Shown here in pieces: positions 7,789 to 62,303 of a stretch of 64,000 bases of DNA (position 1 is the stretch's first letter; the number at the start of each line of letters is the position of its first letter). The position numbers and the translations under genes are program-made. Source of the DNA: Nitrobacter sp. Nb-311A (GTDB taxonomy: Bacteria > Pseudomonadota > Alphaproteobacteria > Rhizobiales > Xanthobacteraceae). The stretch covers positions 62,001 through 126,000 of the forward strand of contig NZ_AAMY01000007.1 in assembly GCF_000152905.1 (NCBI RefSeq). Direction: 5' to 3'. The notes beneath the pieces are model-generated. The model saw only the letters and a list, made by a program, of their open reading frames with translations. It was not told the DNA's origin and ran no database searches.

Positions 7789-7826
7789 GAGCATTTTCGC
7801 TTCCGATTGAGTCAGAAGCGAAGCTC
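7789..7826. repeat. Short palindromic repeat, type II
   Basis: The unit GAGCATTTTCGCTTCCGATT continues into GAGTCAGAAGCGAAGCTC, forming an imperfect stem (GCTTC..GAAGC). The same unit recurs at 8133-8165, 53247-53280 (reverse orientation) and 62234-62268, always in intergenic DNA. It behaves like a REP element of this bacterial family. Confidence 0.75.
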
Positions 7827-8071
7827 CGGATTGTGGCTCCTGCCCGATTTTTCGCCGAGCCATATCCCCCGATCTTGCATCGAATCAAAACAGCGCCCTG
7901 CCCCTGCGAAGCTCCTGTCGATTTTTGACGGAGAGCCACCGGACATGGAACAGGGCTGAAATTCAGTCAGGGGCTGCAGTCTCGCAAACTGAACTGGTCG
8001 AGTCAGATGGTCGCTGACGGCGCGGATTCGCGGAGCCGGTGTTGTTCGCATGGGGGGATATAGTCGAATTA

Positions 8072-8165
8072 GCGCGTTTTTCGAGCGAAGTGGACACCGG
8101 CTCACATCAAGAGAACGCGTCAAATCAAACAAAGAGCCCACTTCTGATTCAGTCAGAAGCGGAAA
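8072..8165. repeat. Composite palindromic repeat, types I + II
   Basis: A type I unit (GTTTTTCGAGCGAAGTGGA, ACACCGG, then GAACGCGTCAAATCAAA; 8072-8126) is followed immediately by a type II unit (CTTCTGATTCAGTCAGAAGC, 8133-8165). The same I-then-II order is found in reverse orientation at 53247-53346. Type I cores also occur at 12291-12371, 34168-34225 and 34651-34706. The combination resembles the mosaic REP clusters (BIMEs) known from enteric bacteria. Confidence 0.75.
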
Positions 8166-8551
8166 GAATCCAGTCGTCGTTAGGGGGATGACCGCACGTC
8201 AGGCGAAGAAGACAAGTTGAACAGCTAAAAGCGCCGCTTCTCAATCACGTCGGCGCCGCGAACTCAACAGACGATGCAAGAGTCAGATGCAGGAATCAAA
8301 GGGATCAACAAACCCAGGCAGGCAACCGCGCCGTCTGCCGCTTCAAAATGATCAAAACGTTCCGGAGACGGCAAGCCCGCTGGTCATACCGAGCGAAGCG
8401 AGTGAAGGCCGGATGCCTGAGTGGGAGCTTGAGATGCAATAATATGAATCGCGACAACCTGCAGCGGGGCCAACGCTACGGCCTCCGCGGCAGAAAGCGA
8501 CGATGACATGTGAACCGCGATGGCGGCTCACACCATCTATTTGACTTTAGC

Positions 8552-12231: not shown

Positions 12232-12290
12232 GGAATCTTGGACCGGGTTAAAAGCCTTCACCGCATCACGAGAACGATGAAAGACTCTGG

Positions 12291-12371
12291 CTTTTGATTT
12301 GACGCGTTTTATTCACGCAAACCCGCGTCCATCCCTGGGTCAAGCCCGAGGACATGCTTCGCTCGAAAACG
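12291..12371. repeat. Palindromic repeat, type I variant (reverse orientation)
   Basis: Read on the minus strand it begins with GTTTTCGAGCGAAGCATGTC, carries an inserted module (TCGGGCTTGACCCAGGGATG) and ends in GAATAAAACGCGTCAAATC, matching the flanks of the type I repeat seen at 8072. It lies between the oxidoreductase and PilZ genes, which converge on it. Confidence 0.7.
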
Positions 12372-12406
12372 GAATAGTCGTCTCCTCGAGACAAGCCTGC
12401 AAAATT

Positions 12407-34167: not shown

Positions 34168-34260
34168 AAGCGTTTTGAACGCAGGGGAAGCCGGTTCGCG
34201 CGAACAAAACCCGTCACACCAAAAGACGTCCTTCATCGCTTCCGTGAAGCGGTGAAGGAT
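34168..34260 (+). repeat. Palindromic repeat copy A (type I plus hairpin module)
   Basis: It contains AAAGCGTTTTGAACGCAGGG, AAGCCGGTTCGCGCGAACAA and CACCAAAAG, matching the type I repeat. An adjoining hairpin module CCTTCATCGCTTCCGTGAAG plus CGGTGAAGG follows (34230-34258). It lies in the convergent spacer between the Hpt and DUF2336 genes. The same composite recurs, inverted, inside DUF2336 (34611-34706). Confidence 0.75.
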
Positions 34261-34285
34261 TTTCGTCTTCGCGCGCGTGAACGAG

Positions 34286-35950
34286 TTACGCCGCCGCAAG
34301 AAGATCGCTGAGCAGCGGCTCGCGATAGGCTCGCGGTGAATCTTTGGGTTTTTCAAAGCTCTGTGCAAGAGACGCAAACGCGTAAGACGCCGGCTCGTCA
34401 AACCTCGGTTCGACGCGCTCCGGTTCATAAGACGCCACGGCGCAAGGTTCAACTTCGCAAGGCTCCATTTCGTAAAACTCAGCTTCGTAAGGCTCAGCTT
34501 CGTAAGACAAAGCCTCACAAGACCATGCGTCATCAAGCTCAGTTTCATCCCCCTCGCATTCGTCGGGTTGGGTCCGGAACGCCAGGCGGTCTAGAAACCG
34601 CGGCCTGGCGTCCTTCACCGCTTCACGGAAACGGTGAAGGAGCCCAGCACTTTGGTTCGACGCGCTTTGTTGCCACGATCCGGTTTCCGCTTCGCTCGAA
34701 AATGCTATTGCGGGCCAAGGTTCGCAGAACTCGTCGCGGAACTCGGGTTCATAAAACTCCGGCTCGCAAACCGGCACTTCGTCCGCTTCGTCATACGCCG
34801 GCTCCCTGGCGACCTCCGCTACCAGCTCGTCACAAAATACACGCGCTTCCTCGCGCGCCGATTCCGTCGCGAACCGCCGCAACAAGATCAGCAGAGGCTC
34901 TGACACCTCATCGGGCGCCGTTTCGCACATCGTCAGCACACGTTCGACCATGCGCCGGCGCAACCGCGCCGCACCGCCGACGGTTTCGACAAAGCCGATC
35001 TCGTCGCGCGCTTCCAGCGCGGCGCGGAACGCAGGGAACGTAACTTCTGGCAGCCCGGCCCGCGTCAGCAGCGCAGGCAAGCTCGCGCCGCCGCGATCAT
35101 GAACCAGCGCAACGACGCGGCTTAAAGGCAGGCCGGACAATTCCGCCAGGGCATGGTCGAACAGCTCCGTATTGCCCGACAGCAGCGCGCGCAAAATCAA
35201 CCCGGCGGTGAGCTGTCCGGTGGCGCGCAGATGCGCGACCAGGCTGTGCATGTCGTCGTCCCGCGCGCGGGCTGCAATGTGAACGATAGAGCGATCGCGC
35301 GCCTCGCTGATCGTGCGATCGGCGCAGTCGACATTGAGCCAGTTGCGGGAAACAACGAACCGCGCCAGCGTATCGGACAGTTTTCCGATCAGCGCGAGCC
35401 GCGTGGCCGCGGGCAGATCGTCGAGCGCCAGCATCGATTCCCGGATCGCCGCGAGATGGCCATGCCGCTCGACGATTCGGTCCCATGACATCGGCGCGAT
35501 ACTTGCGCCCGGATTTTTCATCAGTTCGAGTGCCGCCGTTGCGAAGCCAACCTCGGCGATGGCTGCGCAGACCGACACCGGCACGTGAACCCGGCGTGCG
35601 ACGGCGCACTGCACCTCACGGCTACCGGTCGCGACGATGTCGACGAGGTCCGCGTCGATCAAAAGCGGCGAATATTCGAGAACGGGAACAGCAACGGATG
35701 GCTGATCAACCGACAGCGCCCGGACGATGGCCGCCGGCGCGTTCACGCTGCGCGCGAAAACGTTCGCCATCGCCTGCCGAACCAGCGGCGACGGGTCGTC
35801 GAGTTGCATCAGGAGAGCACCCTCGGCGGCGGCGCGATCGTCATCGGACAGATCAGATATGAGCCAGGCTCTAGCCAGGGCTCGCGTCGCTTCGGCCCGC
35901 TCGCCTGCGGGAGCGGTTCGTACCCAGCTTAAGAATTGCCGAACGATCAT
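34286..35950 (-). CDS. DUF2336-family protein with expanded C-terminus
   Basis: 554 residues. The N-terminal about 370 residues are a helical, HEAT-like DUF2336 region (L-M-Q-L-D-D-P-S-P-L-V-R-Q-A-M-A; R-R-R-M-V-E-R-V-L-T), an uncharacterised alphaproteobacterial family. The C-terminal part looks built from added material. One stretch (about 416-447, including L-L-H-R-F-R-E-A-V-K-D) is encoded by a palindromic repeat element, and another (477-511) by seven pentapeptides related to S-Y-E-A-E. Acidic and Tyr-rich composition suggests this tail is disordered. It is convergent with the Hpt gene. Function unknown. Confidence 0.75.
   Translation of the reverse strand: MIVRQFLSWVRTAPAGERAEATRALARAWLISDLSDDDRAAAEGALLMQLDDPSPLVRQAMANVFARSVNAPAAIVRALSVDQPSVAVPVLEYSPLLIDADLVDIVATGSREVQCAVARRVHVPVSVCAAIAEVGFATAALELMKNPGASIAPMSWDRIVERHGHLAAIRESMLALDDLPAATRLALIGKLSDTLARFVVSRNWLNVDCADRTISEARDRSIVHIAARARDDDMHSLVAHLRATGQLTAGLILRALLSGNTELFDHALAELSGLPLSRVVALVHDRGGASLPALLTRAGLPEVTFPAFRAALEARDEIGFVETVGGAARLRRRMVERVLTMCETAPDEVSEPLLILLRRFATESAREEARVFCDELVAEVAREPAYDEADEVPVCEPEFYEPEFRDEFCEPWPAIAFSSEAETGSWQQSASNQSAGLLHRFREAVKDARPRFLDRLAFRTQPDECEGDETELDDAWSCEALSYEAEPYEAEFYEMEPCEVEPCAVASYEPERVEPRFDEPASYAFASLAQSFEKPKDSPRAYREPLLSDLLAAA
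34418..34522 (-). repeat. 15-bp tandem repeat coding for a pentapeptide
   Basis: Seven consecutive 15-bp units (plus-strand form near CGTAAGGCTCAGCTT) encode S-C-E-A-L, S-Y-E-A-E, P-Y-E-A-E, F-Y-E-M-E, P-C-E-V-E, P-C-A-V-A and S-Y-E-P-E in DUF2336. The central units are nearly identical in DNA, so recent slippage expansion is likely. Confidence 0.85.
34611..34706 (-). repeat. Palindromic repeat copy B inside a coding sequence
   Basis: On the minus strand it reads GCATTTTCGAGCGAAGCGGA, AACCGGATCG, GCGCGTCGAACCAAAG and then the hairpin module CCTTCACCGTTTCCGTGAAG. This is the type I repeat plus the module of copy A. It is wholly within the DUF2336 reading frame and contributes about 32 codons without a stop. 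Confidence 0.75.
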
Positions 35951-53246: not shown

Positions 53247-53346
53247 GAGCCTCTCCGCTCCTGATGGAGTCAGAGGCGGGCTCCATGGTTCTTGATCTGA
53301 CGCGTCTTCTTCACGCGAACTGATATCTACGTCGCTGGAAAACGCT
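53247..53346. repeat. Composite palindromic repeat, types I + II (reverse)
   Basis: Read on the minus strand: AGCGTTTTCCAGCGACGTAG, TTCGCGTGAAGAAGACGCGT, then GACTCCATCAGGAGCGG. Same order as the copy at 8072-8165. It fills much of the purL-bolA spacer and may act on the 3' end of the pur transcript. Confidence 0.7.
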
Positions 53347-53518
53347 ATGGCCTCGAATAATGCACTGGAATCCACGCAACGACGGTTCAACTTAACGTGG
53401 CTGCCTCGTCACGTCACGTAGATCGATCCTATACCCGCACGAACTTCCGATCCGCAAGAGCAAGGAACCCGGCAGGCCGCACCGGTTTGCGGCAAGCGCT
53501 GCGTACCGTGCGCCGCGA

Positions 53519-62233: not shown

Positions 62234-62268
62234 AGCATTTCGCTTCCGATTGAATCAGGAGCGGAGCT
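62234..62268. repeat. Palindromic repeat, type II
   Basis: AGCATTTCGCTTCCGATTGA continuing to ATCAGGAGCGGAGCTTG immediately follows the icd stop codon, in the 70-base convergent gap to alaS. It is a likely 3'-end structure for both transcripts. Confidence 0.7.
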
Positions 62269-62303
62269 TGAGATTGTTGTTCTGACTTGTATTCGCAGAC
62301 CGG

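What the first reader, a model, noticed from the sequence alone, without database searches (positions are those of the whole stretch)
34611..34706. A dispersed palindromic repeat has been captured in frame inside a DUF2336 gene
The minus-strand DNA of the DUF2336 C-terminus contains the full family repeat (GCATTTTCGAGCGAAG, AACCGGATCG, GCGCGTCGAACCAAAG plus a hairpin module). The same composite lies outside genes at 34168-34260, 450 bp away in inverted orientation. Inside the gene it adds about 32 codons, including L-L-H-R-F-R-E-A-V-K-D, without a stop. This resembles Rickettsia palindromic elements, which generate new protein segments. Such protein-coding REPs are not something I know to be described for this family.
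Basis: partly seen in the sequence, partly recalled or inferred. Interest (0 to 1): 0.66.

Follow-up and report, generated by a model that had tools for sequence, protein, structure and literature searches.

The report
In-frame palindromic repeat in Nitrobacter genes
A 102-base-pair hairpin-forming repeat that is scattered through Nitrobacter genomes has inserted itself, in reading frame, into a bacterial gene (and independently into at least two others), adding a stretch of about 34 amino acids to each protein, much as was described before in Rickettsia.

Summary
Confirmed and sharpened. Window 34608-34709 (minus strand), inside the DUF2336 gene 34286-35950, is a copy of a dispersed two-hairpin repeat (75 bits; 41 DNA match rows in this genome, self included). 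The genus is Nitrobacter. Of nine genus members, four that form one clade carry the segment; two sisters show the empty site and three deeper ones lack it; 25 readable outgroup orthologues end without it. The net difference is 102 bp. So it is a gained insertion, not ancestral protein.

It is not unique. The element also lies in frame in a PepSY_TM protein (one genome; a 93-95% identical orthologue is empty) and in a conserved hypothetical protein (two genomes; seven lack it), and near the N-terminus of an SLT transglycosylase, where translation is uncertain. All use the one of six frames that is open in the consensus.

Most likely it is a non-autonomous mobile palindrome, mostly intergenic; the rare in-gene survivors are in the open frame and in tolerant regions. 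The insert evolves like its surroundings (pooled pN/pS 0.44); no function is shown. The phenomenon is known (RPEs, intragenic REPs); I found no description of this family.

The parts
34286..35950 (-). DUF2336-family protein gene, 554 aa, that carries the captured repeat in its C-terminal tail
   Evidence: Open frame; Pfam DUF2336 residues 86-344, E 1.3e-72; NCBIfam SpbR model 256 bits, below its cut-off of 400
34608..34709 (-). Captured element: 102 bp, 34 codons, in the one open frame of the repeat consensus; residues about 415-448
   Evidence: HMM hit 34708-34610, model 3-101 of 103, E 2e-22, ends extrapolated by one or two bases; net difference of 102 nt against the empty sites of G001 and G002
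34611..34641 (-). Second hairpin of the element (HRF-REAVKD palindrome); 94% complementary to the neighbour copy
   Evidence: Inverted repeat I5; fold of the copy -40.4 kcal/mol
34169..34262 (+). Second copy of the element, intergenic, between the convergent DUF2336 and Hpt-domain genes; present in G006, absent in G007 and G008
   Evidence: HMM hit E 1.1e-17; alignment of the intergenic region
8074..8166 (+). Further copy of the element, not in a recognised gene
   Evidence: HMM hit E 2.1e-13; the only ORF of 100 aa or more that overlaps is a 109-aa one on the opposite strand
12253..12376 (-). Further copy, longer form with about 25 extra bases
   Evidence: HMM hit E 8.1e-20; overlaps the start of a 182-aa opposite-strand ORF that was not examined
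53251..53349 (-). Further copy of the element
   Evidence: HMM hit E 2e-14; gene context not examined

Best explanation
The segment is a non-autonomous mobile palindromic element of 102 bp that inserted once, in frame, into the variable, low-complexity C-terminal tail of a DUF2336 gene in the common ancestor of four Nitrobacter genomes, and has stayed in frame since. It works as follows. The element is a multiple of three long and has one frame without stops (IAFSSEVESGSREENASNQ-KARVFHRFREAVKDS). When it lands in a gene in that one of six orientations and phases, and at a place where 34 extra residues do no harm, the gene survives; other landings in genes are lost, so most copies are intergenic. 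Shown: the insertion, its polarity, its length, the open frame, and repetition inside two other genes. Inferred: that the segment is translated, transposition as single-stranded DNA by an enzyme acting in trans, and near-neutral persistence of the captured peptide under weak constraint.
For: Presence in G000, G006, G007, G008 and absence in G001, G002, G005, G003, G004. The carriers form one clade (bipartition support 100), with six outgroup genomes placing the root among non-carriers. 102-nt net difference. Two more internal captures: a PepSY_TM protein in G008, residues 183-216, with G007 (95% and 93% identical on the two sides) and G000 empty, the Pfam match 15-435 spanning the insert; and a conserved hypothetical in G001 (34 codons more than G005) and G002 (35 codons), lacking in the other seven genomes in the alignment. 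All enter the same frame after the second base of a codon. Consensus: one of six frames open. The 7 internal in-gene copies are all open, their indels being 12 bp (G006) and 3 bp (G002); of 50 other full-length copies 26 are open and 19 have net indels not divisible by three. Pooled pN/pS of the insert is 0.44 in DUF2336 (p 0.023) and 0.52 with the second gene (p 0.017).
Against: No expression or protein data. The excess of synonymous changes is weak and rests on small numbers (Sd 14.5, Nd 21.5 in two pairs), and the method ignores transition bias. The flanking tail evolves about as fast, so no constraint specific to the insert is shown. Codon usage of the insert is atypical (-0.14 bits per codon against +0.20 in the core), but the tail after it is low too (+0.01), so this is no proof of foreign origin. 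The empty site in DUF2336 with both flanks is readable in only two genomes; three others also lack neighbouring tail. Only 4 of 60 DNA-selected loci (3 events, one of them uncertain) lie in a coding frame, so capture is rarer than reported for Rickettsia. No mobilising enzyme was found.
Confidence: 0.93

Rival explanations
1. The segment is ancestral protein sequence, and the intergenic repeats only resemble it or derive from it.
For: The element has a long open frame, and four genomes share the segment.
Against: Five of nine genus members lack it, and 25 readable outgroup proteins are 377-451 aa long and end without it. The same unit sits in two unrelated proteins with empty sites in close relatives, so the gene is the recipient.
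Confidence: 0.02
2. The captured peptide has been adopted for a function, for example as a short helix in the tail.
For: Kept open while the core of the gene diverged to dS 0.21-0.53 between carriers; pooled pN/pS below 1; helix predicted at residues 430-447, at very low confidence.
Against: Insert dN/dS (0.14-0.70 over six pairs) overlaps that of the flanking tail (0.22-0.91); G006 deleted four codons; the model has pLDDT under 50 from residue 358 to 547.
Confidence: 0.12
3. The in-gene copy matters as DNA or RNA (mRNA hairpin, pausing, stability) rather than as peptide.
For: The window copy still folds at -40.4 kcal/mol, near the 47 other full copies (mean -41.8, sd 5.0).
Against: The other five of the six copies in the two older captures fold more weakly than that mean (-24.4 to -37.8; one within one sd), while the frame is kept in all; the recent PepSY copy is strong (-51.8). 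This looks like decay, not kept structure.
Confidence: 0.08

Closest known systems
Rickettsia palindromic elements (RPE)
   Same: Short (105-146 or about 150 bp) palindromic repeat in genes and between genes, with an open frame, fused in frame in unrelated proteins (passages of PMC10969869, and PMC2229807).
   Different: Different bacterial order, and no sequence comparison with RPE families was made. The review puts nearly half of RPEs in genes; here 4 of 60 DNA-selected loci. RPEs are listed with 12-bp terminal inverted repeats; here the ends are not inverted repeats.
Intragenic GTAG/CGTC REPs (PMC3733652)
   Same: REPs inside genes of several species, many coding 20-30 residues; CGTC REPs are typical of alphaproteobacteria and lack a dedicated transposase.
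   Different: Those units are 20-40 bp; CGTC stems are 8-9 bp with loops of 4-5 bp in most families. This element is 102 bp with a first stem of 8 bp closing a long loop and a second hairpin of about 18 bp. Their consensus figure was not available to me. Nitrobacter is not named in that text.
Coxiella QMITE1/QMITE2 (PMC5896051)
   Same: Some copies sit in frame in the middle or at the end of genes (passages).
   Different: QMITE1 is 300-400 bp; different lineage; the in-frame mid-gene examples named are in annotated hypothetical proteins.
Br-REP1 and Br-REP2 of Bradyrhizobium (PMC5082802)
   Same: Palindromic repeats in the same bacterial family (recalled), in 3' regions between genes (passages).
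   Different: The printed consensus sequences bear no evident resemblance to this element by eye; described in intergenic regions.

Membership tests
Rickettsia palindromic element-like (protein-coding palindromic element) | Dispersed palindromic repeat found both between and inside genes | tested here: met
   41 match rows in G000, 58 and 64 in G007 and G008 including secondary ones; three capture events, one uncertain, among 60 DNA-selected loci
Rickettsia palindromic element-like (protein-coding palindromic element) | Inserted in frame in unrelated, otherwise conserved proteins, with orthologues lacking it | tested here: met
   DUF2336, PepSY_TM and a conserved hypothetical, each with orthologues that lack it
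Rickettsia palindromic element-like (protein-coding palindromic element) | Sequence homology to an RPE family | not tested
   No RPE sequences were fetched; Rfam has no match at the repeat at gathering scores
RAYT-associated REP (GTAG type) | A RAYT (Y1) transposase gene in the genome, flanked by the repeats | tested here: not met
   PF01797: two partial matches in G000 (model 60-121 and 1-37), none in the other eight genomes; flanks of the two were not examined
Classical MITE | Terminal inverted repeats and target-site duplication | tested here: not met
   Ends TATAGCG and GACTC are not inverted repeats, and no duplication over 1 bp at the two cleanest junctions, PepSY and SLT
IS200/IS605-like non-autonomous element | No TIR, no TSD, subterminal hairpins, fixed short target, HUH Y1 enzyme in trans | tested here: inconclusive
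   First three fit; right flank is mostly TAG (T 37, A 31, G 36 of 45 copies), suggesting a loose target; no enzyme found apart from partial matches. The defining list is recalled.

The most novel reading that the evidence does not exclude
Free-living nitrite oxidisers carry a mobile 102-bp palindrome whose length and single open frame make it a recurring source of a ready-made 34-residue protein segment; captured copies lose their hairpins but keep the frame and in some lineages become part of working proteins.
Probability: 0.2. Interest if true: 0.7.

Novelty: new member of a known kind. Interest (0 to 1): 0.5.

Why it matters
It gives clean before-and-after pairs (filled and empty orthologues in one genus) for a mobile repeat turning into coding sequence in a free-living bacterium. 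In-frame palindromes are best known from Rickettsia with its reduced genome (recalled). The PepSY_TM case, an apparently recent insert in the middle of a membrane-protein family domain with an orthologue 93-95% identical that lacks it, makes the tolerance of such inserts directly testable.

Tried and rejected
Rejected: ancestral protein (orthologues lack it); Rfam RNA family (no match); RAYT-driven REP. Orphan ORF with the element at residue 12 in G002 (L122): apart from itself, matches were to element copies, so no test. Long frames in which the element only extends an ORF upstream of the likely start (by eye: an S49 peptidase, an RND pump, TonB receptors, a FolD-like gene) or that look antisense or non-coding were not counted; these names are by eye, without a family search. 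Of the 60 DNA-selected loci, some others had an ORF through the element with coding-like codons on one side only (for example L007, L197, L202); not counted. Joined-flank test for genes broken by the element: six hits in six loci besides L178, none convincing by eye (L177 lies between a methyltransferase-like and a TatA-like gene). The SLT transglycosylase insert (G007, G008; G000 empty, 102 bp) is real, but the start codon may lie downstream of it, so it is not counted as internal. Chance: a 102-bp repeat with one of six frames open is not remarkable by itself; one further frame is interrupted only by stops at its two ends. Structure prediction was shallow (4 sequences, mean pLDDT 46) and decides nothing. 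A G007 upstream copy aligned against G008 gave no homologous site.

My peptide-based searches favour the open frame, so the frame argument rests on the DNA-selected loci, which hold three events, all in the open frame.

Full report
WHAT IS THERE. On the minus strand the window carries a 554-aa gene, 34286-35950, with Pfam domain DUF2336 at residues 86-344. Its codons for residues about 415-448, window 34608-34709, are a copy of a dispersed repeat. A profile made from 18 other full copies of the same genome scores it 75.3 bits, E 2e-22, and finds four more copies in the window: 34169-34262 (+), 12253-12376 (-), 53251-53349 (-), 8074-8166 (+). In the whole genome (4.1 Mb, 44 contigs) BLAST with this stretch gave 41 match rows, self included and one copy split in two; 40 of 166 first-look candidates were scored, so this is a lower bound.

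THE ELEMENT. The consensus, taken with its flanks as 106 nt, runs C-TATAGCG ... GACTC-TAG. It folds into two hairpins: an 8-bp stem (GCGTTTTC/GAAAACGC) with a long loop that pairs within itself, and a second hairpin of about 18 bp; -50.5 kcal/mol. Only one of its six frames has no stop codon; it reads IAFSSEVESGSREENASNQKARVFHRFREAVKDS. Rfam has no match to it. With a 35-residue peptide as query, translated matches at E <= 0.01 number 102, 60, 105, 7, 28, 53, 60, 137 and 105 in the nine genomes G000 to G008 of the genus (in G000, G002, G007 and G008 only 150 candidates were scored). Outside the genus, 12 of 59 other family genomes had any at E <= 1e-5, at most 10 each.

WHICH ORGANISM. A named search found contigs of the same lengths as those of G006, G002 and G001 under the titles Nitrobacter vulgaris Ab1, Nitrobacter sp. 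62-23 (MAG) and Nitrobacter sp. 62-13 (MAG), so the genus is Nitrobacter. That G007 (3,402,093 bases in one contig) is N. winogradskyi Nb-255 is recalled from its size.

TEST OF INSERTION IN DUF2336. All nine genomes have the orthologue. The segment is present in G000, G006, G007 and G008 and absent in G001, G002, G003, G004 and G005. G001 and G002 keep both flanks (CEP-MSD-RPRF), and the net difference is 111 - 9 = 102 nt; G006 has lost a further 12 nt inside the element (in one search my pattern started too early for G006, G001 and G002, so for these I count from the last EP). G003, G004 and G005 lack part of the neighbouring tail too. A codon tree of 371 codons with six outgroup genomes puts the four carriers in one clade (support 100) and the root among non-carriers. 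Of 41 family genomes searched, 28 outside the genus gave an orthologue at E <= 1e-60 and 11 gave none. Of these 28, three could not be read to a proper end (one broken at once, one without a stop in the piece held, one with a frame-broken tail); the other 25 are 377 to 451 aa long and their printed tails show no element. So the segment was gained once, in the ancestor of four genomes. The tail in which it sits is itself a genus-specific, repetitive, fast-changing extension.

OTHER CAPTURES. (1) PepSY_TM protein of G008 (L114/L143): insert at residues 183-216. G007, 95% and 93% identical on the two sides, and G000 read straight across; the other six genus members have no match at E <= 1e-30. 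The Pfam match runs from 15 to 435, over the insert. (2) Conserved hypothetical (L120/L129; open frame of 424 codons, which includes a stretch before the probable start; no Pfam or NCBIfam hit): the insert is at about residues 250-284 of G002 (35 codons more than G005) and is 34 codons in G001; the other seven genomes lack it in the alignment. (3) SLT/SPOR transglycosylase: G007 and G008 have 102 bp more than G000 just before the signal-peptide-like region; whether it is translated is open, because the start may lie after it. All four sites enter the same frame, after the second base of a codon.

HOW OFTEN. Sixty loci chosen by DNA similarity alone (the 30 of 41 rows that were given loci; the 30 best rows that were given loci) were checked for a coding frame running through the element. 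Four qualify: DUF2336, PepSY_TM and two orthologous SLT loci, that is three events, all in the open frame. By a one-in-six expectation three of three has probability 0.005 (my arithmetic), but the number is small and the SLT case is uncertain (its 11 codons before the element score as non-coding). The hypothetical protein was found by the peptide search and is not in this count. Of eleven further peptide-matched stretches with long open frames, ten of G000 and one of G062, none was a clear internal capture.

DOES IT EVOLVE AS PROTEIN. Over the six pairs of carriers dN/dS of the insert is 0.14 to 0.70, of the core 0.18 to 0.24, of the tail before it 0.30 to 0.91 and after it 0.22 to 0.57. Pooled over the two DUF2336 pairs that share no branch (G000-G006, G007-G008), 14.5 synonymous and 21.5 nonsynonymous changes give pN/pS 0.44 (p 0.023); with the hypothetical protein 0.52 (p 0.017). 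Of 50 other full-length copies (some of them orthologues of each other) 26 are still open and 19 have net indels not divisible by three, whereas the seven internal in-gene copies (four DUF2336, two hypothetical, one PepSY) are all open, with indels of 12 bp (G006) and 3 bp (G002) only. The hairpins fade in most copies of the older captures: -40.4, -28.2 (91 nt), -35.5, -37.8, -32.2 and -24.4 kcal/mol against a mean of -41.8 (sd 5.0, n 47) elsewhere, while the PepSY copy has -51.8. The copies thus look kept as coding sequence under weak constraint, like their surroundings. A specific use is not shown. Codon usage of the insert is poor (-0.14) but so is the tail after it (0.01). The structure model is too poor to help.

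HOW IT MOVES. At the two cleanest junctions there is no duplication longer than one base. The ends are not inverted repeats. In 45 full copies the base on the left is mostly C (30) and the three on the right mostly TAG (T 37, A 31, G 36), while the empty sites read by me show TGG, CGG, CAG or CCG, and TGT there; this suggests a loose target preference (inference). Hairpins near the ends with neither TIR nor TSD recall IS200/IS605-type single-strand transposition (recalled), but Y1 transposase domains were found only as two partial matches in G000 and not in the other eight genomes. The mobiliser is unknown.

WHAT IS KNOWN. In-frame palindromic elements are known from Rickettsia: the review PMC10969869 (passages) puts nearly half of the RPEs in genomic ORFs, and one carrier enzyme (guanylate kinase) was active with changed substrate affinity (PMC2229807, passages; the original papers by Ogata and others are cited there, not read). 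A survey of REPs found intragenic ones in several species (PMC3733652, passages and one section). Coxiella MITEs give in-frame cases (PMC5896051, passages). The 2024 review says that a similar mechanism in other prokaryotes is conceivable. I found no description of this family: a search by five sequence pieces returned no paper, and the listings of word searches showed none on Nitrobacter repeats of this kind (Br-REP1/2 in PMC5082802, abstract and passages, differ). The library holds open-licence papers only, and most listed papers were seen as listings.

VERDICT. The observation and the main interpretation hold. It is a new member of a known kind: an RPE-like, protein-coding palindromic element, in a different order of alphaproteobacteria (order recalled), rarer in genes than reported for Rickettsia, with clean before-and-after evidence.

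Noticed in passing
L112 and L115 (G008 and G007), upstream of the SLT transglycosylase: The element sits just before a signal-peptide-like stretch and contains an in-frame GTG (in VKDS); it may supply the start codon of the enzyme in these two genomes.
   Followed up: partly
window 34286-34810, tail of the DUF2336 gene: The whole C-terminal tail is a genus-specific, repetitive EP/YEAEP-rich extension of very variable length (proteins of 453 to 565 aa in nine genomes), ending in a conserved LLSDLLAAA or a close variant.
   Followed up: partly
L061 (G000:C28:15982-16164) and L062 (G000:C4:5168-5278): Two partial Y1 transposase matches, only in the window's genome among nine; they could be remains of a mobiliser.
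   Followed up: no
L010, L029, L198, L206; window 12253-12376: A longer form of the element has about 25-27 extra bases, after its first 21 or so, which may form an additional small hairpin.
   Followed up: no
L122 (G002:C94:49765-50244): Orphan 160-aa ORF beginning MSNVVAFRTSG with the element in frame from residue 12; no orthologue in the genus, so it cannot be tested.
   Followed up: partly
window 7795-7839 and 62238-62282: Another short palindromic repeat, 82% alike, resembling an alternative second hairpin of the family.
   Followed up: no
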